Source: Acidiluteibacter ferrifornacis
GTDB taxonomy: Bacteria; Bacteroidota; Bacteroidia; Flavobacteriales_E; Vicingaceae
Assembly: GCF_009909615.1 (NCBI RefSeq)
Contig: NZ_WWNE01000018.1
Coordinates: 69,393 to 133,392, forward strand
Length of the DNA: 64,000 bases
Direction: 5' to 3'
Position numbers and translations under genes: made by a program. Below the pieces are notes generated by a model. That model was not told the DNA's origin. It ran no database searches and was given only the letters and a program-made list of their open reading frames with translations. Position 1 is the first letter of the stretch. Every line of letters begins with the position of its first letter. Shown in pieces: positions 47 through 20,538 of this stretch.

Positions 47-62
47 TAGCACACTTCCTTTT

Positions 63-1526
63 TTATTTCACTTCAGGAATACGTTTCAATGCTTCCAAGA
101 AATAATCCCAATACTTTTGAACTGAACTAATTTGAACTTTTTCATCAGGGGAGTGAGCTCCGCGTATGTTTGGTCCGAATGATATCATTTCCATTTTAGG
201 GTAATTGGTTCCTAAAATTCCACATTCTAATCCCGCATGACAGGCTTGAACTCTAGGTTCAGCATCGAATTTTTCACGATATAAATCGGCCATTAAATTT
301 ACAATGTCAGAGTGAGGTAGAGGAGTCCATCCTGGATAACTACCTCCAACTTCTACTTGAGCTCCCATTAATTCAAAGGCAGCAGTCAATGCTTCGGCCA
401 AATCCCATTTCTCAGACTCAACAGAACTTCTCGTCAAACAAAGAATAGAGTATTCTCCGTCTGCTACTTTTACTTGGGCGATATTATTGGAAGTTTGTAC
501 CATGTTTAGCATGGCAGGACTCATTCTATATATTCCGTTTGGAGCGGCATAAATGGCACGGAGCAATAATGCTTGGAAATCTTCTTCCATCACCGCATCA
601 AATTTGTCCATATTTTTTACCGTCACTACAACATTAGGATCGGTAAAGTTGTGCTCGTCTTTGATTGTTTCTTCGTATTCTTTAATCGCTGTTTCAAAAG
701 CTGCCCACTCAGAAACTGGTACTGCTATTTTAGAAACCGACTCTCTAGGTATGGCATTTCTCAACCCGCCACCTTGAATCTCATTGACATAAATTCCCAA
801 TTCATTGGATAGGTTCAGTAATAAGCGATTCATTAGTTTGTTGGCATTTCCTAACCCTTTGATAATGTCCATTCCGGAATGGCCACCACTTAATCCATTG
901 ATGGTAATCTCAACACATTTTACTTCTTCAGGAATTTCCATTTCAGGATAAGCACCCGTAGCAGTTAAATCAACACCTCCAGCACAGCCAATGGTTAACT
1001 CATCATCGTCTTCAGTATCTAAATTCAATAAAATCTCGCCTTCTAAAAGACCACCTTTTAGACCAATGGCACCCGTCATTCCAGTCTCTTCATCGATGGT
1101 AAATAAGGCATCAAAAGCTGGGTGAGGTATATCTGTGCTTTCTAGCAAGGCCATGATCGATGCTACCCCAATTCCGTTGTCAGCTCCTAATGTAGTTCCG
1201 TCTGCTTTTACCCAATCACCATCCACAATCATTTTGATTCCTTCTTTATCAAAATCAAACTGAGTAGCGTTGTTTTTTTGATGTACCATGTCCAAGTGAC
1301 TTTGAATCACTAGTTTTTTGCGATTCTCCATGCCTTTTGTGGCAGGCTTTCGGATGATTACGTTTCCAACTTCGTCGGTTACCACAGGTAATCCTAACTT
1401 TTTTCCGAAATCTTGCATAAAGGCAATTACTCTTTCTTCTTTTTTAGAAGGACGAGGTACTGCATTCAAATCGGCAAAATTATTCCACAATGATTGTGGT
1501 TCTAGCTTTCTAACTTGTTCTGACAT
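63..1526 (-). CDS. pepD: Aminoacyl-histidine dipeptidase (Xaa-His dipeptidase, M20 family)
   Basis: A cytosolic zinc dipeptidase that hydrolyses Xaa-His and related dipeptides such as carnosine-like substrates. The 487 residues match the usual PepD length. Expected M20 metal-site motifs are present: SHLDMV (His/Asp ligands, about residues 77-81), GADNGIG (bridging Asp, about 115), DEETGM (catalytic Glu pair, about 146), NLDTED (about 169) and a late GAHSPDE containing the last His ligand. The central 'lid' domain (about 200-380) is the M20 dimerisation insert. It stands alone on the minus strand with its own terminator, and looks like an ordinary housekeeping peptide-recycling gene. The family assignment is firm. 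Confidence 0.95.
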   Translation of the reverse strand: MSEQVRKLEPQSLWNNFADLNAVPRPSKKEERVIAFMQDFGKKLGLPVVTDEVGNVIIRKPATKGMENRKKLVIQSHLDMVHQKNNATQFDFDKEGIKMIVDGDWVKADGTTLGADNGIGVASIMALLESTDIPHPAFDALFTIDEETGMTGAIGLKGGLLEGEILLNLDTEDDDELTIGCAGGVDLTATGAYPEMEIPEEVKCVEITINGLSGGHSGMDIIKGLGNANKLMNRLLLNLSNELGIYVNEIQGGGLRNAIPRESVSKIAVPVSEWAAFETAIKEYEETIKDEHNFTDPNVVVTVKNMDKFDAVMEEDFQALLLRAIYAAPNGIYRMSPAMLNMVQTSNNIAQVKVADGEYSILCLTRSSVESEKWDLAEALTAAFELMGAQVEVGGSYPGWTPLPHSDIVNLMADLYREKFDAEPRVQACHAGLECGILGTNYPKMEMISFGPNIRGAHSPDEKVQISSVQKYWDYFLEALKRIPEVK

Positions 1527-1701
1527 GATTTTTGTTTTTAGAACAACAAATTTAGCATCATTTAAAGAGAATGAAAGTACAAGTTGAAATTATTCATCAT
1601 TTTCGGCAATTTATTGATTGGTTGGATTGGATTAACTATTTTTAAGTCGTTGAGGTTTGATTACGTCTTAAATACATCCAAAAAATAGTACTTTTACGAT
1701 T

Positions 1702-4821: not shown

Positions 4822-4846
4822 ACGCAAATAATTGTAAAGATCATTT

Positions 4847-6564: not shown

Positions 6565-6826
6565 CTGAATGTTACAATATTGAAATGTTTGATTCAGTCT
6601 ATGAAATAATGATTCTAATTTTTAATATTTTGTTTTGAATAGATTGTATGTTTAGTTCATAAAATAGATAATCAACACAATTACTCATTAATACTGGCGA
6701 CTTAGCTAATGCTAACCATTATTAAAAGTTATATTGAAAGAAAAATGGGGAATACCACATAAAGGGTATTGATTATTAAAAATAGTAGGGTCATCTTTGC
6801 TCTTTAGAATCATTCTAAATAATGAG

Positions 6827-7474
6827 ATGAGTTTAACAATCCTACATGCGAATTCAAATGTGCTGATGTCATTCGGCCTCAAGTCTTTATTGTCGAGAGG
6901 AGGAGGAGTTGAGTCAGTAAAGAATGTTACCCACGAAACTCAATTGTTTCAGGCATTGGAGGAGAGTACTTATGATGTGGTAATTGTAGACCCTAATTCA
7001 AAAGGACATTTTTCATCAGAAACAGTTTTAAAACTTCGAGAAAAGTCTAAATCACAGAAAATGTTGATTATTTCATCTACTGCCAATACCGCTGAAGTTT
7101 TAAAGGTTTTGGAGAAAGGAGTGGAAGGATATTTAACCCGAGAGTGTGATGAAGATGAAATTATCCACGCCATATTTGCGATAGCCAAAGGAGAGAAGTT
7201 TTATTGCAACAAGGTGATGGATATCATACTCAATAAGCAGTATAGCCCAGATGAAGATAATTGCGAACCCACAGCATTAACGCAGCGAGAGTCTGAAATA
7301 ACTGCGTTAATTGCCAAAGGGATGACCAATAAGGGTATTGCAGAACAACTGCATTTGAGCCCACATACCGTGCATACCCATAGAAAAAATATACTTCGAA
7401 AATTAGGAATCAACTCTGTTTCTGAGTTGACATTATATGCGATTAATGTAGGCCTTGTGGCCATGGATTCATAA
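6827..7474 (+). CDS. LuxR-family regulator with degenerate receiver domain
   Basis: 215 residues from the chosen ATG; an upstream in-frame TTG at 6797 would add ten unlikely residues. It has a receiver-like domain (1-120) and a NarL/LuxR helix-turn-helix (about 150-210: LTQRESEITALIAKGM, IAEQLHLSPHTVHTHRKNIL). The presumed phosphoacceptor Asp55 (VIVDPNSKG) is kept. The acidic pair that binds Mg in true receivers is replaced by His-Ala-Asn (residues 7-9), and the conserved Lys is missing near GYLTRE. It may therefore act without phosphorylation. No kinase gene is adjacent. A strong terminator follows, which is also the left copy of the repeat bracketing the next island. Confidence 0.85.
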   Translation: MSLTILHANSNVLMSFGLKSLLSRGGGVESVKNVTHETQLFQALEESTYDVVIVDPNSKGHFSSETVLKLREKSKSQKMLIISSTANTAEVLKVLEKGVEGYLTRECDEDEIIHAIFAIAKGEKFYCNKVMDIILNKQYSPDEDNCEPTALTQRESEITALIAKGMTNKGIAEQLHLSPHTVHTHRKNILRKLGINSVSELTLYAINVGLVAMDS

Positions 7475-7497: not shown

Positions 7498-7537
7498 AAC
7501 GCCGTTTTACTTTTAGAAGTAGAACGGCGTTTTTTTT
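7498..7537 (+). terminator. Intrinsic terminator after the luxR-type gene
   Basis: The hairpin AACGCCGTTTTAC / GTAGAACGGCGTT (one mismatch) is followed by eight T residues. It ends transcription of the LuxR-type gene. Most of the sequence recurs at 19295-19342, so this terminator forms the left boundary of the restriction island. Confidence 0.88.
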
Positions 7538-7548
7538 GTGGGTTGTTT
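7501..7548 (+). repeat. Left 48-bp direct repeat bracketing the restriction island
   Basis: This segment matches 19295-19342 in the same orientation at 46 of 48 positions; the two differences are A/T at offset 23 and G/A at offset 39. A further short match (TTTGAG) lies just outside both copies. It comprises the terminator hairpin plus the T run and GGTTGTTT. It may be an attachment site, a duplication footprint, or a dispersed terminator repeat. Confidence 0.85.
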
Positions 7549-7632
7549 TATTGCAGTAAACATAAAACTGTATATTTATTTGGATTATTGAAATTTGATT
7601 CTTTAATTTGTCTCAGTAAAGTCGAAACTGAA

Positions 7633-8202
7633 ATGAAATTAAGTCAAATTGCAAGAATATTTACTGGTCAAACATTTAGAGGAAGAGTTAATTCTTCAGT
7701 AAATGGAGAAGTAGCAGTAATTCAAATGCGGGATTTAGATATTGATCTAGGACGTATTAGGAATACTGCACAGAAAATAGAATTAGAAAAAGTTAATGGA
7801 AAGCAACTCCTAATGAAAGGCGATGTACTTTTTTTAGTAAAAGGAAACAATAACATCGCTGTATGTTTCGATAAAAAGTATAAAGCCATTGCTAGTTCAT
7901 TATTTGTGATTATTCGACCAAAACCAGAGTTAATAAGAGCAGATTACTTGGCGTATGTTTTAAACAGTAAGCCCATACAAATTACATTGAGCACATTAAA
8001 GTCTGGAGCAGTTGTGAGTAACATTAAAAAGTCTGACTTAGAAGAGATTGATGTTCCGATTCCTTCTAAAAAAGTGCAAAAGAATATTGCTAAATTGTAC
8101 CACCTTTCTAATCGAGAAAAGTTGATTGCTAAACAATTAATGGAACAAAAAGAATTATTATTACAAAACCAATTAACGACTATAATTTATGAAAGACAAT
8201 AA
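7633..8202 (+). CDS. Half-size type I restriction specificity subunit (HsdS-like)
   Basis: 190 residues from the ATG at 7633; an in-frame TTG at 7543, inside the flanking repeat, would add an implausible N-terminus. It carries one target-recognition domain (start MKLSQIARIFTGQTFRG, GDVLFLVKGNNN, DYLAYVLNS, VSNIKKSDLEEIDVPIP) plus one conserved helical arm (VQKNIAKLYHLSNREKLIAKQLMEQKELL). This is half of the two-TRD plan of normal HsdS. Its end overlaps the start of hsdM by 14 bp, so the two are translationally coupled. Such half subunits can dimerise or act as alternative specificity modules. A full-size hsdS lies further down the same operon. Confidence 0.8.
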   Translation: MKLSQIARIFTGQTFRGRVNSSVNGEVAVIQMRDLDIDLGRIRNTAQKIELEKVNGKQLLMKGDVLFLVKGNNNIAVCFDKKYKAIASSLFVIIRPKPELIRADYLAYVLNSKPIQITLSTLKSGAVVSNIKKSDLEEIDVPIPSKKVQKNIAKLYHLSNREKLIAKQLMEQKELLLQNQLTTIIYERQ

Positions 8203-9718
8203 AGTGCTTCAGAATGAAATCAATAAAACCTTATGGGCTGCTTGTGACACGTTTAGAGGAGTGGTAGATTCCTCAGAATACAAGAATTACATCTTGGTGT
8301 TTTTATTTGTAAAGTACCTCAGTGATGTCTGGAAAGATGACTTAGCCAAACTGAGAGAGAAGTACGGAAATGACGAAAAACTCATTCAACGCAAGCTAGA
8401 AAGAGAGCGTTTTTATTTACCTGAGAAGAGTACGTTCGACTTTATTTATGCCAATAGAAATAAAGATGATATTGGGCAGATTATTGACCATGCATTGGAA
8501 TTAATAGAAAGCCAAAATTTAGAAAAGTTAGAAGGCGTTTTTAGAAACATTTCTTACAACTCCGATAAATTAGGGCAAACGAAGGATAGAAACAGTCGAT
8601 TGAAGAATTTGATTGACGATTTCGCAAATCCTGTACTAGATTTTAGACCTTCTGTTTTACCAAAAGCTGAAGATATTTTAGGAAAGGCCTATATGTATCT
8701 GTTGGAAATGTTTGCTTCAGGCGCAGGCAAGAAAGGCGGGGAGTTCTTCACGCCTATGGAGGTTTCTCAACTTCTTGCTAAAGTGGTAGCGCCAAAAGCT
8801 GGTTCTCGTATTTGTGACCCCACATGTGGTTCAGGGTCTTTATTGACTACCGTGGCCGATGAAGTGAGAGATGAAAAAGGAAATCCGAGTATCGACTATT
8901 CACTTTACGGACAAGAGAGTAATGGCGACACCTGGGCTTTGGGTAAAATGAACATGTACATTCACGGAATGGATTCCGCTAGGATAGAATGGGGCGATAC
9001 CATTAATAATCCTTTATTGAGAGAAGGTGAAGGATTGATGAAATTTGATGTGGTAGTAGCCAATCCACCTTTTAGTTTAGATAAATGGGGATATGATAAA
9101 GCCGAAGTCGACCCTTTTAAACGATTTATGCGCGGTTTGCCACCAAAATCTAAAGGAGACTACGCTTTTATTTTGCACATGATAGAAACGCTAACCCACA
9201 AAGGAAAAGCAGGAATAATAGTGCCACATGGCGTATTGTTTAGAGGAAGTGCTGAAGGTAAGTTAAGAAAGGACTTAATCGATGACAATTTATTGGAAAT
9301 GGTAATTGGTTTGCCAACTAACTTATTTTTCGGTACTGGTATTCCTGCAGCCATAGTGGTGTTTAATAAAGCTAAAACACATGATAATGTATTGTTTATA
9401 GATGCTAGTAAAGCATTTGAAGAAGGAAAAAAGCAAAACAAATTAAGAGAAGAAGACATTCAGAAAATAGTGGATAGTATTGCTGCTGCCAAAACATGGA
9501 AAGCTGGCGATGGGATAGATAAGTTCGCTTATTTAGCACCCTTATCTGAAATAAAAGAAAACGACTACAATTTGAATATCCCAAGATATGTAGACACATT
9601 TGAAGAAGAAGAGCAAGTGGATATTAAAGAAGTGCAACAAACCATCAATCGATTAGAAACCGAATTGGTAGAAGTGCGAAAAGAAATGGCCGGCTATTTA
9701 AAAGAATTGGGCTTATAA
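8189..9718 (+). CDS. hsdM: Type I restriction-modification methyltransferase subunit
   Basis: 509 residues, standard HsdM size. N-terminal HsdM helical domain (LWAACDTFRGVVDSSEYKNY, about 11-30), then the N6-adenine methyltransferase domain with SAM-binding motif I DPTCGSGSLL (210-219) and catalytic motif IV NPPF (292-295). It transfers methyl groups to adenine in the host target sequence and pairs with HsdS for recognition and with HsdR for restriction. It starts inside the end of the half-hsdS gene. The C-terminal helical tail (about 480-509) is the usual HsdS-contacting region. Intact, with no frameshift. Confidence 0.96.
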   Translation: MKDNKVLQNEINKTLWAACDTFRGVVDSSEYKNYILVFLFVKYLSDVWKDDLAKLREKYGNDEKLIQRKLERERFYLPEKSTFDFIYANRNKDDIGQIIDHALELIESQNLEKLEGVFRNISYNSDKLGQTKDRNSRLKNLIDDFANPVLDFRPSVLPKAEDILGKAYMYLLEMFASGAGKKGGEFFTPMEVSQLLAKVVAPKAGSRICDPTCGSGSLLTTVADEVRDEKGNPSIDYSLYGQESNGDTWALGKMNMYIHGMDSARIEWGDTINNPLLREGEGLMKFDVVVANPPFSLDKWGYDKAEVDPFKRFMRGLPPKSKGDYAFILHMIETLTHKGKAGIIVPHGVLFRGSAEGKLRKDLIDDNLLEMVIGLPTNLFFGTGIPAAIVVFNKAKTHDNVLFIDASKAFEEGKKQNKLREEDIQKIVDSIAAAKTWKAGDGIDKFAYLAPLSEIKENDYNLNIPRYVDTFEEEEQVDIKEVQQTINRLETELVEVRKEMAGYLKELGL

Positions 9719-9742
9719 ATAAAACAGATAATTGAAAATTAT

Positions 9743-9900
9743 TGGGTGGAAGATGGGATTCGAACCTGAATTAGTATTCGGTGGAGAATATCGGATTCGA
9801 AGCGGAGAAAGAGGGATTCGAACCCTCAACAATATAAAGAGATAGCTTTAGCAAACTTGTCTGGGGTTCGAACCCAAGACTTTGTATTTGCCATATGCAT
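9743..9900 (-). repeat. Cluster of tRNA T-arm-like fragments
   Basis: Between hsdM and the next gene, the minus strand holds several tRNA 3'-end-like pieces. The best (9811-9827) is GAGGG-TTCGAAT-CCCTC on the minus strand, a perfect 5-bp T-stem with a 7-nt T-loop, followed by TTTCTCCGC as in the acceptor end of a serine tRNA. A second (about 9861-9878) reads TTGGG-TTCGAAC-CCCAG. Weaker copies of the TTCGAA core occur at 9755-9766 and 9791-9802. No anticodon or D-arm is present, so these are not tRNA genes. They are probably scars of tRNA-targeted integration. Confidence 0.65.
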
Positions 9901-9950
9901 CTTAAAAAAAAAACTCCCATTTTTTTTCAGTTAGACAATGATAATGAAAT

Positions 9951-10490
9951 ATGGAAAAGAAAGAACGAACGTATCGAACAAAAGAGCTGTTAATAGAAAT
10001 GGCAGACACTTCGTTGAAGGAAGTTTTTTATAAGTTGGCTAAAAATCAAGAAATAGCTTTAAACAATTTTAGAACGAATTTAAGTTCCTTATTTATTCAA
10101 GGTGACTGTATTCGAGATCAAATTGTAGGTTTAGATTTAATGGATTTTGGAAATAATCTAAATGCAATTATTTCTGATGAACCGCTAGAATATACCACAC
10201 CATTAAGAATTGAATTTCAACTTCATTTAGGAGAGTTATTCGATTTTCCTGATAACAAAGATTACATTATTTATGAATTTGAAATAGCGTTCAATGAATA
10301 TGATTACAATATTGCTTTAGATTATTTTAATGACGAATTAAAGGAAGGTAACAATAGAGAAATTAGTAAAAGGTTCATGTATGATGAAGCTAATCAGGAT
10401 TCCATCCTAGCTTTGGTCGATAAGTATACCGACTCAGTTCAAAAGCATATCAATTATTTGAAGGAACAAAGTAAAGTCACTAAGCTATGA
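9951..10490 (+). CDS. Unknown protein coupled to Fic in the restriction operon
   Basis: 179 residues with no family I recognise. It is mainly helical at both ends (TKELLIEMADTSLKEVFYKLAK; ALVDKYTDSVQKHINYLKEQ), with an acidic beta-rich middle (DFPDNKDYIIYEFEIAFNEYDY). There is no signal peptide or membrane segment. Its stop codon overlaps the fic start by four bases (ATGA), so the two are translationally coupled. That arrangement is common for antitoxin/toxin or modulator/effector pairs, but no Fic-inhibitory motif is visible here. It could equally be an accessory subunit of the restriction complex. Confidence 0.6.
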   Translation: MEKKERTYRTKELLIEMADTSLKEVFYKLAKNQEIALNNFRTNLSSLFIQGDCIRDQIVGLDLMDFGNNLNAIISDEPLEYTTPLRIEFQLHLGELFDFPDNKDYIIYEFEIAFNEYDYNIALDYFNDELKEGNNREISKRFMYDEANQDSILALVDKYTDSVQKHINYLKEQSKVTKL

Positions 10491-11860
10491 GGTTTGAAAA
10501 TTTATTAAATCTTATCGATGCTAACCACCAAAGGATAGCGGAGCTAAAAAGCGAAAAGAAACAAACGCTAGAAAAGTTAAAATATACTTTTCAACTCGAG
10601 TGGAATTACCATTCTAATAAAATAGAAGGAGGTCCACTAACTATTGAAGACACCAAAAAAGTAATGGCAGGAGTGCTTTTTGAATCTACTATAGATAAAA
10701 AGTACATTGAGGAAATGAGAGGGCACAATGAGTTAGTGGAAGAGGTTTTTAACACTCCTCCGAAACAACTTGAATTGAAGCCAAAGCGAATTAAAGAAAT
10801 GCATAAAAAAATAATGCATGAAAATAATTCTGCTAGAATGAATGAGGTAGGCCAATGGAAATCTCAAGATAACTATGTGATTAACTACCGTAAAGAAAAG
10901 TTTAAGTTCTTGAGTGTTGATTTTGTGGACGATGAAATAAAACACATCTGCAAAGAACTTGCTTTCGATTTGGAATCTGAGATTGTTCACCCAGTAGAAT
11001 TGGCAGCCAAATTTTTTCTTGATTTCATTGAAATTCATCCGTTTTATGATGGAAATGGAAGAGTAGGTAGAGCCCTTTCTAATCTAATTTTAATCAATTA
11101 TGGTTTTCCACCATGCATCATTAAAAGTAATGAGAAAGAGAACTACTTTCAGTTATTGGCAGATATACAGAGTTATGGAAGTAATGAAGAATTGTTTTTT
11201 TGCTTTTTTGCTGAGAAAGTACTGAATGCTCAGGAGGAAATATTAAAAGCATTCGATGGGGAAGTATTTGTTGCTGTAGACGATAATTTTACGAATCGAT
11301 TAGAGTTATTAAATGAGAAGCTACATAACTTAACAAAAGCAGACAAAGAGACAATTGATAAGCCGATTGTAAATAAGCTTTTAGATGGTTGGCTATTAAG
11401 CTTAAGTAAACAACTTTTTAATACTGTAAAACTGTTTGAGCAATTTTTTGAAGAACCTTCTCATTTTGTAACCTTATCACATGAAGGAACTGAAAAAGAA
11501 AGCCGGGTAGCTGATTATTTGCAATTGATAAAATGGTTGCAAAATGAGATACAATCTGCAAATGAATTAAGAAAGAGCGCGCGAGTTACCATTGACTTTT
11601 TCAGAAATACGCAATTGAAAAAAGTGCCAAAAGCGAGTAGCCAATTAATGTGTGTAATTAGTGTAGAGCTGTTTCCAACACATTATGTAATTGCTACAAA
11701 TTTTAATGAGAATAACTTCACCTTTGATAATAGAATTTATGAGAAAGCGCCCACTAAGGAAGAGGTGAGTACCATAATAAATACGTGCAAGTTAAATGTA
11801 TTAGAATATATAGAAAAGCAATACACTGAATTGAATGCTCATCCTAAAACCTCCAACTAA
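10487..11860 (+). CDS. Fic family protein (predicted AMPylase, class II)
   Basis: 457 residues. The catalytic Fic loop HPFYDGNGRVGR (184-195) is fully canonical, so it should transfer AMP or another nucleotide moiety to a hydroxyl side chain. An inhibitory-helix motif SNKIEG (43-48, [S/T]xxxE[G/N]) precedes the Fic core, which makes it a self-inhibited class II Fic protein. The C-terminal half (about 250-457) is an unassigned extension. It sits between hsdM and hsdS, overlapping the upstream gene by 4 bp and hsdS by 1 bp (TAATG). Fic genes occur inside type I restriction loci, but their target there is unknown. Confidence 0.9.
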   Translation: MRFENLLNLIDANHQRIAELKSEKKQTLEKLKYTFQLEWNYHSNKIEGGPLTIEDTKKVMAGVLFESTIDKKYIEEMRGHNELVEEVFNTPPKQLELKPKRIKEMHKKIMHENNSARMNEVGQWKSQDNYVINYRKEKFKFLSVDFVDDEIKHICKELAFDLESEIVHPVELAAKFFLDFIEIHPFYDGNGRVGRALSNLILINYGFPPCIIKSNEKENYFQLLADIQSYGSNEELFFCFFAEKVLNAQEEILKAFDGEVFVAVDDNFTNRLELLNEKLHNLTKADKETIDKPIVNKLLDGWLLSLSKQLFNTVKLFEQFFEEPSHFVTLSHEGTEKESRVADYLQLIKWLQNEIQSANELRKSARVTIDFFRNTQLKKVPKASSQLMCVISVELFPTHYVIATNFNENNFTFDNRIYEKAPTKEEVSTIINTCKLNVLEYIEKQYTELNAHPKTSN

Positions 11861-13071
11861 TGACCACAACTACAAAAGAGACTGATTCAACGACTTCTAA
11901 TAAAAACGGCTACAAAAAAACCAAATTGGGTTGGATTCCTAAAGAGTGGGAGGTGGTAAGTTTAGGGGAATATTTTGATTTTAAGAATGGGCTAAATAAA
12001 GAAAAGGAGTTTTTTGGTTTTGGAACGCCAATTATAAATTACATGGATGTTAATAAAAACTCTTCTTTAACTAAAAACAAAATTCTAGGAAAAGTTAGTT
12101 TGACTAAAGGTGAGATTAAAAGATTCAATATTAAAAAGGGTGATGTTTTTTTTACAAGGACTTCTGAAACAATTGAAGAAATAGCTTTTTCTTCTGTTCT
12201 TTTAGAAGATGTTGAAAATGGGGTGTTTAGTGGCTTTGTCCTTAGGGCTAGACCTAAATCAGGAAATACTTTAGATATTAATTATTTGAAGTATTGTTTT
12301 TCTACTTATTTAGCTAGAAAAGAAATTATGAGTAAAAGCTCATTAACAACTCGTGCATTAACAAATGGTACTTTATTATCTGAAGTAAACTTATTACTCC
12401 CACCGCTTCCCGAACAAGAAAAAATAGCCCAAATTTTAAGCACTTGGGATGATGCCATTGCCAAACAAACCGATTTAATTGCCCAAAAAGAAGCACTAAA
12501 AAAGGGCTTAATGCAAGAGCTACTCACCGGTAAAAAACGCCTAAAAGGCTTTACCGATAAATGGAAAGAAGTGAAGTTGGGGGAGGTGTTAACTTTTGGA
12601 AGTGGAAAGGATTATAAGCATCTTAATTCAGGGAATATACCAGTATTTGGGACAGGAGGATTTATGACTTCTGTAGATGATTATTTATATGATGGTGATA
12701 GTGTTGGGATAGGCAGAAAGGGCACAATTAATAAACCAATATTTCTTAGTGGAAAGTTTTGGACGGTAGATACTCTCTTTTATACGCATTCATTTAAAAA
12801 CATCTTACCATTTTATGTTTACTTGAAGTTTCAAACTATAAATTGGAAATTTTATAATGAAGCTTCAGGTGTGCCAAGTTTATCGAAATCAACAATCGAA
12901 AAAATTAAAATTTTACTTCCAGCACTTCCCGAACAACAAAAAATAGCTACCATATTATCAGCAGCAGATACCGAAATAGAAAAACTAAAAGCACAAAAGA
13001 GCGCTATAGAAACGCAAAAGAAAGGGTTAATGCAAATATTGCTCACAGGAAAGGTAAGAGTAAAGCACTAA
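11860..13071 (+). CDS. hsdS: Type I restriction specificity subunit, two target-recognition domains
   Basis: 403 residues with the normal HsdS plan: TRD1 (about 22-185), a central conserved arm (LPPLPEQEKIAQILSTWDDAIAKQ, ending KKGLMQELLTGKKRL, about 186-230), TRD2 (about 231-350) and a C-terminal conserved arm (LPALPEQQKIATILSAADTEIEKL, ending KKGLMQILLTGKVRV). The two arms are clear internal repeats. It determines the bipartite DNA target of the complex. Its start overlaps the fic stop by one base. It is the second HsdS-type gene in this operon, alongside the half-size gene before hsdM. Confidence 0.94.
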   Translation: MTTTTKETDSTTSNKNGYKKTKLGWIPKEWEVVSLGEYFDFKNGLNKEKEFFGFGTPIINYMDVNKNSSLTKNKILGKVSLTKGEIKRFNIKKGDVFFTRTSETIEEIAFSSVLLEDVENGVFSGFVLRARPKSGNTLDINYLKYCFSTYLARKEIMSKSSLTTRALTNGTLLSEVNLLLPPLPEQEKIAQILSTWDDAIAKQTDLIAQKEALKKGLMQELLTGKKRLKGFTDKWKEVKLGEVLTFGSGKDYKHLNSGNIPVFGTGGFMTSVDDYLYDGDSVGIGRKGTINKPIFLSGKFWTVDTLFYTHSFKNILPFYVYLKFQTINWKFYNEASGVPSLSKSTIEKIKILLPALPEQQKIATILSAADTEIEKLKAQKSAIETQKKGLMQILLTGKVRVKH

Positions 13072-13072
13072 A

Positions 13073-13465
13073 GTGAAACGCAAAATAATACCATATAACC
13101 CTATTTTAACCGCTAGAGCTAAAAAGTTGCGCAAAAGCAAGACGCTGCCCGAAGTGCTGCTGTGGAAAGCCATAAAAGGCAAACAAATCGGCGGCTTTGA
13201 TTTTGATCGCCAACGGCCAATAGATCATTATATCGTCGATTTTTATTGCAAAGATTTACAATTGGCCATAGAAGTAGATGGCTGTTATCATTTCGAAGAC
13301 GAAATGCTCGTAAAAGACGCCATCCGCCAAAAGCGGCTAGAAGAGTTAGGCGTTACTTTTTTGCGGTTTACCAACGATGAGGTAAAACGAAATTTGGCAT
13401 TAGTAGTCAAAGAAATAAAAGAATATGTGGAACAGAACAAAGATAATTTAGTGGGTAGGGAATAA
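13073..13465 (+). CDS. DUF559 (Vsr-like) endonuclease-domain protein
   Basis: 130 residues starting at a GTG one base after the hsdS stop. It matches the DUF559 family: LRKSKTLPEVLLWKAIKGKQIGG, RQRPIDHYIVDFYC, LAIEVDGCYH and VTFLRFTNDEV. The Asp in IVDFYC and the ExD in IEVDG fit the PD-(D/E)xK/Vsr-like fold of very-short-patch-repair-type nucleases. It is richer in GC than its neighbours, and a GC-rich REP-like palindrome follows 6 bp after its stop. That suggests it arrived with its own repeat element rather than as part of the original restriction operon. Confidence 0.85.
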   Translation: MKRKIIPYNPILTARAKKLRKSKTLPEVLLWKAIKGKQIGGFDFDRQRPIDHYIVDFYCKDLQLAIEVDGCYHFEDEMLVKDAIRQKRLEELGVTFLRFTNDEVKRNLALVVKEIKEYVEQNKDNLVGRE

Positions 13466-13470
13466 GGGAA

Positions 13471-13519
13471 GGGCATACTGACCCTCCCCTTATTCCCCTC
13501 CAAAGAGGGGAGCGCATCC
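13471..13519 (-). repeat. REP-like GC-rich palindromic element, copy A
   Basis: The core CCCCTCCAAAGAGGGG is nested in a longer GC-rich unit. The reverse complement of this element aligns with 14274-14322: shared blocks are ATGC, CTCCCCTC/ATCCCCTC, GAGGGGAA, AGGGG-GGG and ATGCC. Copies A and B are therefore inverted with respect to each other and flank the 212-residue membrane-protein gene. The composition differs sharply from the AT-rich surroundings. Confidence 0.7.
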
Positions 13520-13563
13520 AGGATAAATGAACAATAGAATTAAAAGATTAAGAATCTATAAAA

Positions 13564-14202
13564 ATGTCAAATAAGAAAAGTGTTAACGATAGTATTATCT
13601 CTTTAGTAAAACCTTTAAATGATACGGTTTACCTTTCGGTTGATGTTTCAGGAAATACAGATGTAACTTTTCCTGAAACCTTAGTTAATATTGAAGCTCA
13701 AAAGAAAGAGACATGGGATTATTGGTTTGAAGGCATTACACTCGTAGGTGTATTTGTAACGATTCTATTTACGATTTTATCCATTAAGAAATTACTCAAA
13801 AAAAGTGAAGAGAATAGTCAACTTTTAGAGCAACTAGTAAATCAAAATAAGTTAAAAGAAAGGCATATTAAAATGGAATCTAGACCTGATTTAACGTTTT
13901 CAACCACTTGTAATCCAACTGAAATGCAAGTATATTTTCATTCCAGAGATAATGAAGTTCGAGAAATTGAACTGACTAAACTAAGTGGGAATGCAGAAAT
14001 GCAACCTAAAAACAAAGCGAATAGAAAAATAATAGGTTCTCAGACATTTGATATAATGATTTACCCTTTGCCTGAAATACAAGTCAAAGAAGTGGAATTA
14101 GAATTTAAGTTAGAATACCGAGACAAAGCAGGATATCAATATATTAGATTTTATAAATTAGAAAACAGAAAGCTGACTTTATTAAATGAAATAGAACTTT
14201 AA
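13564..14202 (+). CDS. Unknown single-pass membrane protein between inverted repeats
   Basis: 212 residues of no recognised family. One transmembrane helix (about 59-77, GITLVGVFVTILFTILSI) is followed by a short coiled-coil (KKSEENSQLLEQLVNQNKLKERH, about 82-104) and a soluble C-terminal beta-rich domain (about 108-212). The N-terminal part is short and polar. The gene lies between the DUF559 nuclease and hsdR, enclosed by the two inverted REP-like elements, and is probably cargo of the island. I can suggest no function. Confidence 0.6.
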   Translation: MSNKKSVNDSIISLVKPLNDTVYLSVDVSGNTDVTFPETLVNIEAQKKETWDYWFEGITLVGVFVTILFTILSIKKLLKKSEENSQLLEQLVNQNKLKERHIKMESRPDLTFSTTCNPTEMQVYFHSRDNEVREIELTKLSGNAEMQPKNKANRKIIGSQTFDIMIYPLPEIQVKEVELEFKLEYRDKAGYQYIRFYKLENRKLTLLNEIEL

Positions 14203-14273
14203 ATTTTGAGTTTGAAGCTAATTATTTTCTTATTAATAGTTGTTTTAAAATAAATTAGCCCAATCCATATAGA

Positions 14274-14322
14274 ATGCCATCCCCTCAAGGGAGGGGAACT
14301 CAAAGGGGTGGGAAAAGATGCC
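14274..14322 (+). repeat. REP-like GC-rich palindromic element, copy B, with adjacent partial duplication
   Basis: The core TCCCCTCAAGGGAGGGGA is followed by CTCAAAGGGGTGGG and ATGCC, the inverted counterpart of copy A at 13471-13519. Its right part (14299-14330) is tandemly duplicated at 14340-14371 (CTCAAAGGGGCGGACAAAAATGCC). The element runs into the 5' side of hsdR and creates an artificial in-frame upstream extension of that gene. Confidence 0.7.
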
Positions 14323-14396
14323 AATTAGAACTACCAAAGCTCAAAGGGGCGGACAAAAATGCCAATAAGAAACCCAAATGCCAAAACAAAAAACGA

Positions 14397-17300
14397 ATGA
14401 AATACGCTGAATACGAAGACTCACAAAGCCCTGCAATACATTTGTTGCAAAAAATGGGGTACACTTATCTGTCACAAGAGCAACAGCTAACAAGTAGAAA
14501 TGAGGTGCTCTCCTCCGTTATTTTAGAAGATATATTGGCTGAGCGGTTATCGGCTATTAACGCCTACAGCTATAAAGGTGCAAGCTATTCATTTTCTCCT
14601 TCAAGCATTCAAGGCGCTATTACCGCTTTAAAAAACATTCCAGATCAAGGAGTGGTGTTGACCAATGAGAAAGTGTATGATTTAATCAGTTTAGGCAAGA
14701 GTTTTACAGAAAATGTAAAAGGCGATAGAAAAGCATTTACGTTAAAATATATCGATTGGGAAAATTGGGAGAACAATCATTTTCACGTAGTAGAAGAATT
14801 TACGGTAGAAGGAATCAAAGAAAAACGCCGCCCTGATTTGGTGTTGTTCGTCAACGGGATTCCATTTGTAGTCATAGAAAACAAGCGAAGAGATAAAAAC
14901 GAGTCGGTAGAAGAAGGAATTTCTCAAACGTTAAGAAACCAGAAGAAAGAAGAAGGAATACCCCGTTTGTTTCATTTTGCCCAGTTGCTGATAGCCATGC
15001 AACCCAACGAAGTGAAATATGGCGCTACAGGCACAGCGGCTAAGTTTTGGGCAGTGTGGAAAGAAGAAGTAGAGAAGGACGTAGCTAAACTAATAAAATC
15101 AACTAATAACGGCATAGATTCGGAAGATCGATTACCGACTGAGCAAGATAAAGCATTGTACAGCCTTTGTCGTCCGGAGCGATTGATTGATTTGGTTTAT
15201 AAATACATTGTTTTTGATGGACCAGATAAAAAAATAGCCCGTTATCAGCAATACTTTGCCGTTCAAGACACCTTGCAGCAAGTCACTCAATTTACAGCCG
15301 AAAAGCGCAGAAAAGGCGGAGTAATTTGGCACACCACAGGCAGTGGAAAATCATTGACCATGGTGATGCTTTCAAAAGCACTGGCGCTAAATGAATCCAT
15401 TAAGAATTCAAGAATTATTATCGTAACTGATCGTATTTCATTAGACAAGCAGATTTATGGCACTTTTAGCAACTGTGGTAAAAAGGTAAAAAAGGCCAAA
15501 AGTGGGTCTGATTTAATAGAATTGTTACAGGATAAGGGCAATGAAATAATCACTACCATTTTAGATAAGTTTCGGTCAGCAGCAAAAAAAACAACATTCA
15601 AAGAAACATCAGAAAATATATTTGTATTGATCGATGAAAGCCACAGAAGCCAATACGGGTCGGCCAATATTATGATGCGTAAAATGTTGCCCAATGCTTG
15701 TTTTATAGGATTTACAGGAACCCCTTTAATGAAAGGGCCTGAGCAAAATACAGCTCGTAAATTTGGTGGTTTTATACATAAATACACCATTGACCAAGCA
15801 GTGAAAGATGGAGCCGTTTTACCGCTGCTTTATGAGGGAAGATCAGCTCAATTGAGCATCAATAAAAAGCAAATTGACAAAGGATTTGAGCGACTGTCAG
15901 AGAATTTGAATAAAGATGCTCAGAAGGATTTAAAAAAGAAATTCGCTTCGATTAGTAAAATCTACGAGTCGGAACATGTGATTGAAGAAATAGCTTACGA
16001 TATAGCACAGCATTATTGCAAAAACTGGCAAGGCGGCATGTATAAAGCACAATTGGCCGTTCCTAAGATTGATACTGCCATTAAATATCAAAAGTATTTT
16101 GAAACCCAAAGTAACCCTGAGTTGAAAATCAATACAGCAGTGGTTTTTACACCGCCGGATAGTCGACAATCACATGAAGATGTTTGGTCAGAATCGAGTG
16201 AAGAATCCAAGAAGTATTGGAAATCATTGATGCTGAAATACCAGAATCAAGAAGAATATGAGCGGCACGTAATTGACCGGTTCAAGGAAGAAGGAACAGC
16301 AGTAGAAATAATAATAGTCGTTAGTAAGTTGCTTACAGGTTTTGATGCTCCACGAAATACGGTTTTGTATTTAGCCAAGCCATTGCATTCGCACAATTTG
16401 TTGCAAGCCATTGCAAGGGTAAATAGATTATTTACTGGAAAAGATTATGGACATATTATAGATTATGTTGGGATTTTGGGAAAATTGGATGAAGCGTTAA
16501 CCAATTATTCAGCATTAGAAGATTTTGATCCCGATGATTTGACCAATGCGGTGATAGATATTCGAGAGGAAATTAGAAAAGTGCCAATACGCCATTCAAC
16601 AGTTTGGGATATTTTCAAAGAAGTCTACAACAAAGAAGACAATGAAGCTTTAGAGCGTCATTTATCAGCAAAGAATGTACGGGATGAATTTTATGAGCTA
16701 TTATCGAGTTATGCTAGATGCTTACAAACAGCTTTGAGTAGTAATGAATTTTACGAGGAGTTTTCAGATGATGATATTGGGTTTTATCGTTCAGAATTAA
16801 AACGTTTTCAAAGTTTAAGATCATCAGTTCAATTGCGTTATGCTGAAGTGGTTTCCTACAAGGAATTTGAGCCTCGCGTTCGAAAATTGCTCGATACTTA
16901 TATAGATGCCGAGGAGGTGGAATTGATTACACAAGGCATTAATATTTTTGATAAAGGTGAGGTGAGTGAAGCGCTAGAGAATTATGGTAAAACTGCTGCT
17001 TCAAAAGCTGATTTTATTGCGAGCAACATGAAAAAAGTCATCAATGAAAACATGGAGAAAGACGAGGCTTATTATAAGAAGTTCTCCGAGTTAATTGAAG
17101 ATACAATTCGCGCATTTAAAGAGGGCAGATTAAGCGAAAAAGAGTATTTGGAAGAAATTCTGAAAACACGAGATGGGTTAGAAGGCGGATTTACAGAGAA
17201 TACACCTACAGCATTGCACAAAAATGAGAAAGCAAGAGCATTTTTTGGAGCCCTTAACGAAGGTCTTAAGCTCTCTCAAAATGAATCACAGTTGTTAAAA

Positions 17301-17522
17301 ATTAAAGAGGAATTAGCTATAGCCGCACTGGAGATCAATCAGATTGTTGAATCTATGATTATTCGAGATTGGAAGCGAAATTTGGATATTCAGAAGAAAA
17401 TGGAGAATGATATTGAAGATTATTTAATTAACCACAAAGGAAGTTTGGGAATTACCTTAACCTATGATGAAATAGATGAGGTATTGTTAAAATGCATCAA
17501 GGTGGCAAAACACAATTTTTAA
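14397..17522 (+). CDS. hsdR: Type I restriction endonuclease/translocase subunit
   Basis: 1041 residues from the ATG at 14397. An in-frame extension to 14274 only translates REP-like repeat DNA and is rejected. Domains: N-terminal HSDR_N nuclease with Asp147 and Glu161-x-Lys163 (VIENK), SF2 helicase motor with Walker A TTGSGKS (313-319), DESH box (413-416), FTGTPLMKG motif III, and motif VI QAIARVNRLF, then a long helical C-terminal region. It translocates and cleaves unmethylated DNA with HsdM/HsdS. The stop overlaps the next start (TAATG). All catalytic motifs are intact, so the system is probably functional. Confidence 0.96.
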   Translation: MKYAEYEDSQSPAIHLLQKMGYTYLSQEQQLTSRNEVLSSVILEDILAERLSAINAYSYKGASYSFSPSSIQGAITALKNIPDQGVVLTNEKVYDLISLGKSFTENVKGDRKAFTLKYIDWENWENNHFHVVEEFTVEGIKEKRRPDLVLFVNGIPFVVIENKRRDKNESVEEGISQTLRNQKKEEGIPRLFHFAQLLIAMQPNEVKYGATGTAAKFWAVWKEEVEKDVAKLIKSTNNGIDSEDRLPTEQDKALYSLCRPERLIDLVYKYIVFDGPDKKIARYQQYFAVQDTLQQVTQFTAEKRRKGGVIWHTTGSGKSLTMVMLSKALALNESIKNSRIIIVTDRISLDKQIYGTFSNCGKKVKKAKSGSDLIELLQDKGNEIITTILDKFRSAAKKTTFKETSENIFVLIDESHRSQYGSANIMMRKMLPNACFIGFTGTPLMKGPEQNTARKFGGFIHKYTIDQAVKDGAVLPLLYEGRSAQLSINKKQIDKGFERLSENLNKDAQKDLKKKFASISKIYESEHVIEEIAYDIAQHYCKNWQGGMYKAQLAVPKIDTAIKYQKYFETQSNPELKINTAVVFTPPDSRQSHEDVWSESSEESKKYWKSLMLKYQNQEEYERHVIDRFKEEGTAVEIIIVVSKLLTGFDAPRNTVLYLAKPLHSHNLLQAIARVNRLFTGKDYGHIIDYVGILGKLDEALTNYSALEDFDPDDLTNAVIDIREEIRKVPIRHSTVWDIFKEVYNKEDNEALERHLSAKNVRDEFYELLSSYARCLQTALSSNEFYEEFSDDDIGFYRSELKRFQSLRSSVQLRYAEVVSYKEFEPRVRKLLDTYIDAEEVELITQGINIFDKGEVSEALENYGKTAASKADFIASNMKKVINENMEKDEAYYKKFSELIEDTIRAFKEGRLSEKEYLEEILKTRDGLEGGFTENTPTALHKNEKARAFFGALNEGLKLSQNESQLLKIKEELAIAALEINQIVESMIIRDWKRNLDIQKKMENDIEDYLINHKGSLGITLTYDEIDEVLLKCIKVAKHNF

Positions 17523-18220
17523 TGGAAGTATTGACCTACGGACATATTGATCTTAGTTATACACTAGAGCGTCACGACAGAAAATCATTGGGTATAGAAG
17601 TACATCCGGATTTAAGTATTGTGGCTAAAGCACCCGAAACAGCCTCTTTTGAAGATATAGAAGGAAAGCTCCTAAAAAGAGCTAGATGGATAGTAAAACA
17701 GCAACAATATTTTGAGCAATTTCTGCCGAGGAAGCCTAAAAGCGAATACTTCTCAGGAGAAACTCATTACTACCTGGGAAAGAGTTTTTTATTAAAAGCG
17801 CGAGTTGGTGATACAAAAACGGTGAAAATGAAAAATGGGTGTTTGTGGGTAACCCATCCAAATCCATCTCCAAGTATAACAAAAACGCTTTTGACGGATT
17901 GGTACTATCAGCATGCAAATAAGATGTTTGAAAATAAATTTGAGGTCAATTTTAAAAAGTTTGAGCGTTTTCAATTATCCAAACCAGAGTTAGAGATTAG
18001 GAGAATGAAGAATCGTTGGGGAAGTTGTTCTGCGCAAGGCATTATTCGATTGAATCCTGAATTGATTAAAACTCCAAGTCCATGTATTGATTATGTAATT
18101 ATCCACGAGTTGTGTCATTTGATAGAACCCAACCACAGTAAACAATTTTATGAATTGCTGGAAAGGCAGTTGCCCAACTATCAATTTCTTAAAGGTCGAC
18201 TAGAAAAGTTTGAATTATAA
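17522..18220 (+). CDS. YgjP-like M48-type metallopeptidase (DUF45)
   Basis: 232 residues from the ATG at 17522, which overlaps the hsdR stop as TAATG; an upstream in-frame start at 17492 is less likely. The DUF45/YgjP signature is complete: MKNRWGSCSAQGIIRLNPEL, then IDYVIIHELCHLIEPNHSKQFY with the zinc motif HExxH (HELCH) and a downstream His. This family is frequently encoded beside hsdR, where its role is not established; a regulatory proteolysis role is possible. Here it is the last gene of the restriction operon. Confidence 0.88.
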   Translation: MEVLTYGHIDLSYTLERHDRKSLGIEVHPDLSIVAKAPETASFEDIEGKLLKRARWIVKQQQYFEQFLPRKPKSEYFSGETHYYLGKSFLLKARVGDTKTVKMKNGCLWVTHPNPSPSITKTLLTDWYYQHANKMFENKFEVNFKKFERFQLSKPELEIRRMKNRWGSCSAQGIIRLNPELIKTPSPCIDYVIIHELCHLIEPNHSKQFYELLERQLPNYQFLKGRLEKFEL

Positions 18221-18221
18221 A

Positions 18222-18357
18222 ACAACCCAAGCGTTCGTTGCACCCCTGCGTTATTAGCGCTCTGCGGTTTCAGCTTGAGTCGTTGTATAAAAGCCACAAG
18301 GAATAAAATAACAGCGCGGTCAACTAATTGACCTCACCGCCACTTCATGTGGCTTTC
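18222..18357. repeat. Composite two-hairpin element
   Basis: The first inverted pair is ACAACCCAAGC (18222-18232) with GCTTGAGTCGTTGT (18273-18286). The second is AAAAGCCACA (18289-18298) with TGTGGCTTT (18349-18357), and an inner stem GGTCAA / TTGACC (18318-18333) sits inside it. Two adjacent cruciform-type structures directly after the restriction operon suggest a repeat element or structured RNA rather than a simple terminator, because neither hairpin is followed by a T run. Confidence 0.5.
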
Positions 18358-18723
18358 AAAATAAAAGTACTTATTTCTATTCCAATATACAATATCTTCA
18401 TTTTGTAACTCTATTTTTAGTGTTTGGAACGGCCTTGAAAATTCTTTAAGAATTTCGAATTTATGCCTTAGAAAGTTTGACCAGCTACGAAGAATTGAGG
18501 AGATCAGTTAAACGTCTTAGGCTTAAAGAGTATTTTGAAGAAGAATTTTCACAGCCTTGAATTTTTGGTTCATTTTGTGTCAAGACAAAAGAACATTAAA
18601 GAAATATACATTTTCCCAAAAAAAACTAATTCAATGAGCAATCCTCAAATAATCATCGTGTACTTAAAGCATTTTTTTATCGGACAATAATGATTTGGAA
18701 TTAAAAAATAGTCTAACATCTAA

Positions 18724-18741
18724 ATCCGATAGCTATCGGAT
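18724..18741. repeat. Perfect 18-bp palindrome ATCCGATAGCTATCGGAT
   Basis: A perfect inverted repeat with short flanking direct repeats (TCTAACA at about 18712 and 18741, GTCTAAC at 18711 and 18756). Palindromes with a GATAGCTATC core are widespread as intergenic repeats in Bacteroidota, so this is probably a REP-like copy, not a dedicated operator. Confidence 0.5.
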
Positions 18742-18862
18742 CTAACAGCGCAGCGGTCTAACCTCTATAGCATGTCAACAATACTTTTTAACCACTATTA
18801 ATACTTCTCTACTTCCATCTTAATCTGATAATCTCTAATTTCGAGAGAAATCATTTAACACT

Positions 18863-19290
18863 ATGTTATACACCGTTTCTTATCAGCAACCGAATACCCA
18901 TTATATTGATATCGAATTAGAAGTGAAAGGAGTGAAGGGATCCACCATTCAGTTTCAATTACAGCATGGCGGCCGGGTAGGTATGAGTTGGGCAATTTTG
19001 CAAAGAACATTCAGAAGTGGAATGCTTTTGATACAGATGGAAATGAATTGCCATCAAAAAAGCTAACCAAAGATTTGTGGGAAGTCATTACTATTGGAAC
19101 AGAAGCAGTAATAGTGAATTATAATTATTTCGCCAATGAGTTGAATGCAGGTTCCACATTTTTGGATGCTTCTCAATTGTATATCAACGGAGTGAATTGT
19201 TTCGTGTATATTCCTAATCGAATGGATGAGGTATGTGAGCTGCAATTGGAATTACCAGAGCAATACCTTGTAGCTTGTGGACTTAAGGCT
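18863..19290 (+). pseudogene. Truncated, frameshifted M61 family metallopeptidase
   Basis: The first frame (MLYTVSYQQPNTHYIDIELEV, to about 18961) and then a second frame (from about 18962: AWRPGRYELGNFAKNIQKW, later LTKDLWEV, TFLDASQLYINGVNCFVYIP) together give the N-terminal beta domain of an M61 glycyl aminopeptidase-type protein. A single lost C at about 18962 explains the shift: restoring TTA-CCA-GCA-TGG yields the family's Leu-Pro-Ala-Trp. The gene then stops at about residue 140, where the right copy of the 48-bp repeat begins; the catalytic HExxH half and PDZ domain are missing. Clearly a relic. Confidence 0.8.
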
Positions 19291-19294
19291 TTGA

Positions 19295-19342
19295 GCCGTT
19301 TTACTTTTAGAAGTAGATCGGCGTTTTTTTTGTAGGTTGTTT
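19295..19342 (+). repeat. Right 48-bp direct repeat bracketing the restriction island
   Basis: Same orientation and 46/48 identity with 7501-7548. It is fused to the broken end of the M61 relic. The left hairpin arm lacks the AACG present in the other copy, so its terminator function is weakened, although the T run is retained. Its position marks the right edge of the island. Confidence 0.85.
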
Positions 19343-19745
19343 GTATATATATTTCACTATGATCAGAAAAAGCTGTCTAATTATTCCGATGTAGTAAATA
19401 ACATGATGCATTTAATCTATTTAATGATTTAAATTTTAGCTTATTAGTGTATTTGTAAAACGATATGCTTCGCTTTCTTAAAATTTCCAATTACAGGCCT
19501 TAGTGATTTACCTACTTAAAAACACTTAATACAAAAATGAGGGTTTTCTCTCATTGGATGATTCTGCATTTTGATCCATCTTTGTTATGGTTAAACTGTG
19601 TAACACACTTTACCTCTCAGCTGAAATAATGCTGAAGGAATGAAAAGATGAAAAGTTGATATTGGGTTTAAGAGTTACCCTTCTAGTAGTGTAGTAATTC
19701 AACTTTTCATCTTTTCCTAAAGTGTTAAATCCAAAATTGTAAATT
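19343..19745. other. Intergenic region with a long hairpin before two small genes
   Basis: 403 bp without a gene. The first 270 bp show nothing notable. The last part holds the large inverted repeat listed at 19642-19716, in the leader of the 90-residue gene. Confidence 0.5.
19642..19716. promoter_or_regulatory. Long perfect hairpin upstream of the 90-residue gene
   Basis: GAAAAGATGAAAAGTTGA (19642-19659) and its exact reverse complement (19699-19716) form an 18-bp stem enclosing about 39 nt. A small inner stem GGGT / ACCC lies in the loop. The right arm ends 29 bp before the ATG at 19746. It has no T run, so it is more likely a structured leader, a protein-binding site or a mini-element than a terminator. 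Confidence 0.6.
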
Positions 19746-20018
19746 ATGAGCGATCAGCCTATTCAATATAAAAGAGAGGATTTATTACAGTATAGAACTC
19801 AAATCATCTACGATATGATGTCTATTCCGGGTGTACTTTGTGTTTCTATAGGACTTAAAGAGGTTAATGGAGAGTATACTAATCAATTGTGCTACAAAAT
19901 CTATGTGAAGGATAAAGTCGATACCTCACAATTACCTGATGAACATATTATACCTAACACCTATAAGGGATTTCCTACCGATGTTGTTGTAATGCAAACC
20001 TTAAGGAAGGTCGCATAA
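19746..20018 (+). CDS. Small protein resembling the N-terminal domain of trypsin-like proteases
   Basis: 90 residues with no signal peptide. The pattern IIYDMMSIPGVLCVSIGLKEVNGEYTNQLCYKIYVKDKVDTSQL, ending IPNTYKGFPTDVVVMQ, resembles the short alpha/beta module at the N-terminus of some bacterial trypsin-like proteins (GVxGVGxGxK ... IxVYVxxK ... IPxxxxGxPTDV). No protease domain follows; the open frame ends after VMQTLRKVA. The role is unknown. It lies 115 bp before another small protein and then a sensor cassette, and may be secreted or signalling cargo. The similarity is from memory of the pattern only. Confidence 0.6.
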   Translation: MSDQPIQYKREDLLQYRTQIIYDMMSIPGVLCVSIGLKEVNGEYTNQLCYKIYVKDKVDTSQLPDEHIIPNTYKGFPTDVVVMQTLRKVA

Positions 20019-20133
20019 TAGCTACCCTTTTTCTTCTATTTTATCTTTCTATTATAAATCTTTAGATTTCTTTCATCTGTATCTAAAAAGTGCGATATTA
20101 GTCCACACTAATACAAACCATAAAAAAATAGAG

Positions 20134-20475: not shown

Positions 20476-20492
20476 ATATTACAGAACCTTAT

Positions 20493-20538
20493 AAGGCAAT
20501 TGGATGTTTTAATAAACATCTAATTGCCTTGTTTTTTG
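20493..20538 (+). terminator. Strong intrinsic terminator
   Basis: A long hairpin with arms AAGGCAATTGGATGTTT and AAACATCTAATTGCCTT (one mismatch), followed by G and six T residues. It separates the two small proteins from the sensor cassette. Confidence 0.92.

What the first reader, a model, noticed from the sequence alone, without database searches (positions are those of the whole stretch)
7501..19342. 11.8-kb restriction island bracketed by a 48-bp direct repeat
7501-7548 and 19295-19342 are the same sequence in the same orientation (46/48). The left copy is the terminator of the LuxR-type gene; the right copy cuts off an M61 peptidase relic. Everything between is accessory (type I restriction system, Fic, DUF559, unknowns). 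No integrase is present, so excision could occur by homologous recombination or by an enzyme supplied elsewhere. Alternatively the terminator is a dispersed repeat.
Basis: seen in the sequence. Interest (0 to 1): 0.7.

Follow-up and report, generated by a model that had tools for sequence, protein, structure and literature searches.

The report
Rearrangement scar beside a restriction island
The two matching 48-base sequences are real, but they do not mark the ends of a mobile element: a bacterial DNA-defence gene cluster was inserted beside one copy, and the other copy is most likely a scar of an old chromosome rearrangement that broke a neighbouring gene.

Summary
The repeat is real: 7501-7548 (T) and 19295-19342 (T') match at 46/48 and are the only two significant matches in the 22-contig assembly. 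It does not bracket the island. The nearest relative (G001; MAG Vicingaceae M30B7) has LuxR, a conserved 71-bp element and an intact M61 gene in a row, without island. The window keeps that order: the 71-bp element is at 18215-18284 and M61's first 433 nt at 18863-19294. So the foreign DNA, a 10.7-kb type I restriction-modification cluster, ends near 18216, about 1.08 kb short of T'. The complete M61 gene, followed by def, is on another contig; its 5' end is duplicated in the relic (454/483). T' begins exactly where M61 (GCGGTTTTGCTTTT) resembles T (GCCGTTTTACTTTT, 12/14). Outside T, T' and T's own hairpin arm this is the only such site in about 148,500 positions. T' is best read as a scar: a switch or unequal exchange from M61 back to T at the breakpoint that split the LuxR-M61 locus. 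The dispersed-terminator alternative finds no support. Excision across T/T' is not excluded, but would be weak (longest identity 23 bp) and would take native DNA along. Ordinary overall; the order of events is unproven.

The parts
60..1562 (-). pepD-like gene, left neighbour of LuxR in G001; anchors the native locus
   Evidence: 79.5% DNA identity to G001 L013:14611-16114
6797..7474 (+). LuxR-type response regulator gene, native
   Evidence: Response_reg + GerE; 79% DNA identity to G001
7501..7548 (+). T, left copy of the 48-bp repeat: terminator-like hairpin plus T-run and tail; taken as the original copy
   Evidence: fold -23.5 kcal/mol over 42 nt
7549..18216 (+). Inserted type I restriction-modification cluster; left edge somewhere in 7549-7632, right edge at about the YgjP stop codon
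   Evidence: absent between LuxR and M61 in G001; no HsdR match at E <= 1e-200 in 44 of the other 45 genomes searched, a 45% partial match in G044
7633..8202 (+). HsdS half-subunit (one specificity domain)
   Evidence: Methylase_S; Specificity_I
8189..9718 (+). HsdM methyltransferase
   Evidence: N6_Mtase E 6.4e-106
9951..10490 (+). unknown ORF, overlaps the start of Fic
   Evidence: no Pfam or PADLOC match
10487..11860 (+). Fic protein
   Evidence: Fic E 3.8e-16; PADLOC PDC-S04 and SoFic
11860..13071 (+). HsdS specificity subunit (two domains)
   Evidence: Methylase_S, 2 stretches
13073..13465 (+). DUF559 protein
   Evidence: DUF559 E 3.2e-31
13564..14202 (+). unknown ORF
   Evidence: no Pfam or PADLOC match
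14274..17522 (+). HsdR restriction subunit
   Evidence: HSDR_N, SWI2_SNF2, T1R_D3-like; REase_I E 2.6e-198
17492..18220 (+). YgjP-like metallopeptidase, last gene of the insert
   Evidence: YgjP-like E 6.2e-53, profile 1-206/207
18215..18284 (+). native conserved element of about 71 bp with a foldable hairpin, lies between LuxR and M61 in G001
   Evidence: 89% identity to G001:C1:457244-457314; found in G000 and G001 only among 46 family genomes
18285..18781 (.). extra DNA in the native intergenic region; 18391-18693 is a dispersed repeat
   Evidence: partial copies elsewhere in G000, G001 and G002
18863..19294 (+). M61 peptidase relic: first 433 nt of the gene, 1-nt deletion (frameshift), then cut
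   Evidence: 18812-19294 against C9: 454 identities, 29 mismatches, 1 gap; Peptidase_M61_N
19295..19342 (+). T', right copy of the repeat, joined to M61 at a 14-bp resembling site
   Evidence: 12/14 resemblance at the junction

Best explanation
Two separate events met at one locus. (1) The ancestral locus of this genus was LuxR - terminator - 71-bp element - M61 - def (shown by the G001 order). A type I restriction-modification cluster of about 10.7 kb was inserted between the terminator T and the 71-bp element (shown by comparison; mechanism unknown). (2) A rearrangement split the locus inside or just before M61. Copying that had reached nt 433 of M61 switched back, or exchanged unequally, to the resembling 14 bp at the start of T and copied T (inferred from the junction). 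This left M61's 5' part joined to T' and then to unrelated DNA, while a full M61 with def survives on another contig (C9), so about 484 bp around the M61 start are present twice (shown). Two versions fit: a tandem duplication T..M61(1-433) followed by a break in the second copy, or one replicative rearrangement in which T' is a 48-bp templated insertion at the breakpoint. The 48-bp repeat is therefore a scar, not the island's attachment site.
For: Order pepD, LuxR, 71-bp, M61 shared by window and G001, island absent from G001. The M61 relic has its native upstream sequence; full M61+def is on C9. Junction resemblance 12/14; among about 148,574 positions only T, T', T's own reverse hairpin arm and this M61 site reach 12/14. 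The junction type (M61 left, T right) is the one a backward switch gives. The relic decays like a pseudogene: 17 changes on the relic branch (codon positions 5/4/8; 7 synonymous, 10 not) against 6 on the C9 branch (0/2/4; 4 and 2), 4 unresolved, 431 sites. T/T' divergence 2/48 is of the same order as the 29/483 of the M61 copies, and T' has lost a stem pair.
Against: Only one informative relative; G002 is 69% complete and shows neither gene. The 14-bp length was chosen after seeing the junction; over 18 or 24 bp the resemblance is weaker (12/18: 89 of 148,558 positions; 14/24: 242 of 148,534). The DNA after T' (19343-29617) has no DNA match in G001 at E <= 1e-5 and 19343-19745 does not resemble the ancestral intergenic DNA, so the second side of the event is not reconstructed. 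The C9 M61 piece begins behind an N run (L019:3320-5005), so its true neighbour is unknown. A 13-bp inverted repeat at the two edges of the insert is unexplained.
Confidence: 0.72

Rival explanations
1. Circle and reinsertion: T and M61 recombined across the 14-bp resemblance to make a circle (T - island - 71-bp - M61N), which then integrated by homologous recombination at T in a genome where T was already followed by 19343+, giving T ... T'.
For: Gives the same two junctions and explains why T' is followed by unrelated DNA.
Against: Needs a recipient already split at this locus, and integration across at most 48 bp; no circle or donor seen.
Confidence: 0.13
2. One reading: a mobile island with the 48-bp repeat as its ends, moved by an enzyme supplied elsewhere or by homologous recombination.
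For: 46/48 direct repeat, two copies only; cluster absent from G001.
Against: Native 71-bp element and M61 5' end lie inside the repeat on the right. No recombinase among scanned ORFs. G001's terminator after LuxR is a different sequence, so T is not seen as an empty target. Exact core 29-mer absent from viral contigs.
Confidence: 0.06
3. T is a dispersed terminator repeat and its two copies here are coincidence.
For: Dispersed intergenic repeats do exist in this genus, one of them at 18391-18693.
Against: Only two significant copies in the assembly and none in 45 other family genomes.
Confidence: 0.03
4. Restriction-modification insertion with long target duplication, as described for Helicobacter: the insertion itself duplicated its target T.
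For: A restriction-modification cluster is present and a target-like sequence is duplicated in direct orientation.
Against: The duplicated copy is not at the edge of the inserted genes; native DNA separates it.
Confidence: 0.06

Closest known systems
Type I restriction-modification cluster with accessory genes (hsdM, hsdS, hsdR)
   Same: All three subunits are present with the expected domains.
   Different: An additional half-size hsdS precedes hsdM; Fic, DUF559, two unknown ORFs and a YgjP-like gene are interspersed.
Insertion with long target duplication of restriction-modification genes (Nobusato et al. 2000; seen only as described in passages of PMC1643837 and PMC3031569)
   Same: Restriction-modification genes between direct repeats, near a rearrangement.
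   Different: The repeat does not abut the inserted genes on the right; native DNA lies between.
DNA duplication associated with inversion in Helicobacter (seen only as cited in a passage of PMC4671568; the original, PMC3029772, is not held)
   Same: A gene segment is present at two places that were one place in the relative, as expected at rearrangement breakpoints.
   Different: The copies lie on two contigs, so inversion and relative orientation cannot be read.
Short-homology template switching or tandem duplication in bacteria (PMC3161906, search listing and start of abstract only)
   Same: A junction at a short imperfect homology with a copied stretch.
   Different: Here inferred from one fossil junction, not observed.

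Membership tests
Integrative mobile element with attachment-site direct repeats | Repeats lie at both ends of the foreign DNA | tested here: not met
   Right copy lies about 1.08 kb inside native locus DNA
Integrative mobile element with attachment-site direct repeats | Encodes a recombinase | tested here: not met
   No such family in 9 island ORFs or 5 further ORFs; a trans-acting enzyme cannot be excluded
Integrative mobile element with attachment-site direct repeats | Empty site in a relative carries one copy of the repeat | tested here: not met
   G001 empty site has a different terminator sequence and no T; only one relative
Integrative mobile element with attachment-site direct repeats | Circular or excised form | not testable with these tools
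   needs reads or PCR
Type I restriction-modification system | HsdM, HsdS and HsdR with their domains | tested here: met
Type I restriction-modification system | Methylates and cuts DNA at a specific site | not testable with these tools
   needs methylome or plasmid restriction assay
Insertion with long target duplication | Inserted genes directly flanked by a duplicated target present once in the empty site | tested here: not met
   T on the left, 71-bp element on the right; T' not adjacent
Dispersed terminator repeat | Many genomic copies after unrelated genes | tested here: not met
   two copies; none in 45 other family genomes
Duplication associated with inversion | Segment duplicated at two breakpoints | tested here: met
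   about 484 bp around the M61 start on C14 and C9
Duplication associated with inversion | Copies in inverted orientation on one chromosome | tested here: inconclusive
   copies are on separate contigs; an N run lies upstream of the C9 copy

The most novel reading that the evidence does not exclude
The arrival of the restriction system and the rearrangement were one linked event: restriction breaks at a newly acquired or unstable type I locus triggered the switch from M61 back to T, splitting the locus and leaving the cluster inside a direct repeat built from host DNA, through which it can now be amplified or lost.
Probability: 0.1. Interest if true: 0.45.

Novelty: new member of a known kind. 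Interest (0 to 1): 0.2.

Why it matters
It is a clear example of how a direct repeat around a defence cluster can mislead: comparison with one empty-site relative moves the true right boundary 1.08 kb inward and turns an apparent attachment site into a rearrangement scar. The junction, with its imperfect 14-bp resemblance, suggests that a terminator hairpin can serve as a landing place for template switching.

Tried and rejected
Tried without result: matching 19343-19745 and C9 5006-5209 to the ancestral intergenic DNA to order the events; 19343-19745 showed nothing above shuffles, and C9 matched only the 50 bp or so next to M61. Searching G001 for the DNA after T': no match in the first 10.3 kb, four matches further on; 77 candidates, of which 40 were scored. 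Searching G001 for the DNA upstream of the C9 M61: three matches, none near its M61 gene. The C9 stretch just upstream of M61 is not a clear repeat in this genome (next match 37 bases at 81%, E 0.006). Rfam: two matches, both below the curated threshold, none at the 71-bp element. HsdR against plasmids: 2778 records, best row 47.5% identity; against phages: 23 records, among the 5 rows shown 31.9% over 84% of the protein and 35.8% over 56%; no near source. GC content does not set the cluster apart (0.349 against 0.359 for the window; profile), so foreignness rests on absence from relatives.

Rejected: terminal inverted repeats of a transposon at the edges (13 bp), because CAACCCA of the right arm is native in G001 and no target duplication is visible by eye. 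Misassembly: 29 mismatches and a frameshift between the M61 copies, and 2 differences between T and T', speak against a simple assembly error (inference). A literature search for restriction-modification islands with direct repeats at a terminator gave 13 papers, 10 listed, none opened.

Full report
What is there. The 48-bp repeat is confirmed at 7501-7548 (T) and 19295-19342 (T'), 46/48, same orientation. A 71-base query around T finds ten matches in the window's own assembly (22 contigs, 3,516,632 bases); only T and T' are significant, the third being 17 bases at E 0.06. In a family-wide search of 46 genomes with a joined query, the T part matched only in this genome, at T and T'. An exact 29-base core was not found in the viral contig collection.

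The empty site. The closest informative genome, G001, is one of three genomes in the genus set; G002 is 69% complete and gave no match. G001's contig 1 has the length and coordinates of JAGYIE010000001.1, a MAG named Vicingaceae bacterium M30B7, so I take them to be the same. There the order is pepD (opposite strand), LuxR, a 71-bp conserved element, M61, def. The window holds pepD (60-1562), LuxR (6797-7474), the 71-bp element (18215-18284) and the first part of M61 (18782-19294 with upstream) in the same order and orientation. So this is the ancestral order for the two genomes, and everything right of about 18216 up to T' is native locus, apart from about 0.5 kb of extra intergenic DNA that includes a dispersed repeat. 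LuxR next to M61 was not seen outside G001: of 40 family genomes with M61 I had loci for 30, and LuxR was beside M61 only in G001; of 14 LuxR loci M61 was beside it only in G001. Of 58 LuxR loci from genome contigs I tested 20; M61 was present only in L096, the same genome.

The insert. Between T and the 71-bp element lies a type I restriction-modification cluster: half-size HsdS, HsdM, unknown ORF, Fic, HsdS, DUF559, unknown ORF, HsdR, YgjP-like peptidase. The HsdR search, asked for the order, examined 46 genomes: matches at E <= 1e-200 in 2, this genome and a 45%-identical partial match in G044. That cutoff is strict and does not exclude more distant HsdR genes. No integrase or transposase family was hit in the nine insert ORFs or in five further ORFs. 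The left edge is not resolved within 7549-7632; the right edge is at about the YgjP stop codon.

The right repeat. The complete M61 gene of this genome is on contig C9 and is followed by def. Its start region matches the relic at 454 of 483 aligned positions, with one gap, over 18812-19294. Polarised with G001 over 431 sites, 17 changes fall on the relic branch, spread over codon positions 5/4/8, and 6 on the C9 branch at 0/2/4, with 4 unresolved. The relic also has a 1-nt deletion. It has thus been decaying since the duplication. T' starts where the relic leaves M61, at nt 433. In register, M61 reads GCGGTTTTGCTTTT where T reads GCCGTTTTACTTTT. In about 148,574 positions of the window and the C9 stretch, both strands, four reach 12/14: T, T', T's own reverse hairpin arm, and this site. 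The length of 14 was chosen after the fact; at 18 and 24 bases the resemblance is less unusual (89 of 148,558 and 242 of 148,534 positions). T' has a stem mismatch that T lacks and folds less well, which agrees with T being the original. The consensus terminator scan listed neither copy.

Reading. A junction with M61 on the left and T on the right is what a backward switch or unequal exchange between two direct, resembling sites gives. It yields either a tandem duplication, later broken in its second copy, or a single replicative rearrangement with T' as a templated insertion. I cannot tell these apart: DNA after T' finds no match in G001 for 10.3 kb, resembles no ancestral intergenic DNA, and the C9 piece begins behind an N run. 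Either way the repeat belongs to the breakage of M61, not to the arrival of the restriction genes. I give 0.72 to this reading.

Could it still excise? The longest perfect identity is 23 bp, near the lower limit usually quoted for RecA-dependent exchange in E. coli (recalled). Excision would remove the cluster, the 71-bp element and the relic together. This is not excluded and is testable.

Known kinds. Restriction-modification genes inserted with long target duplications, and their links to inversions or translocations, are described for Helicobacter and others; I saw passages of PMC1643837 and PMC3031569, a reference-list entry in PMC3874152, and a passage of PMC4671568 on duplication with inversion. 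Two of the original papers were looked up and are not held; Nobusato et al. 2000 was not looked up. This locus shares the ingredients but fails the defining feature of target duplication at the insert's own edges.

Noticed in passing
7539-7551 and 18217-18229: A perfect 13-bp inverted repeat (TGGGTTGTTTTAT / ATAAAACAACCCA) lies at the two edges of the inserted cluster; 1 of 1500 random same-distance region pairs has one as long. The right arm is partly native in G001. Unexplained.
   Followed up: partly
18215-18284: Conserved 71-bp intergenic element between LuxR and M61, 89% identical in G001, with a foldable hairpin whose inner stem seems to change on both sides (by eye); no Rfam match there. 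Possibly a small RNA or leader.
   Followed up: partly
18391-18693: Dispersed repeat with partial copies in G000 (11 further places listed, 73-91% identical), G001 and G002.
   Followed up: partly
7633-8202: A half-size HsdS gene precedes and overlaps HsdM, in addition to the full HsdS at 11860-13071; could allow changes of specificity (inference).
   Followed up: no
9951-11860: Unknown ORF overlapping a Fic gene inside the restriction cluster; the Fic protein carries SNKIEG and HPFYDGNGR, which resemble the self-inhibitory and active-site motifs as I recall them.
   Followed up: no
1563-6749: About 5 kb with a TonB-receptor-like gene and another ORF lies between pepD and LuxR in the window but not in G001.
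   Followed up: no
L019:3320-5005: N run of 1686 bases just upstream of the intact M61 on contig C9: an assembly gap or a withheld stretch.
   Followed up: no
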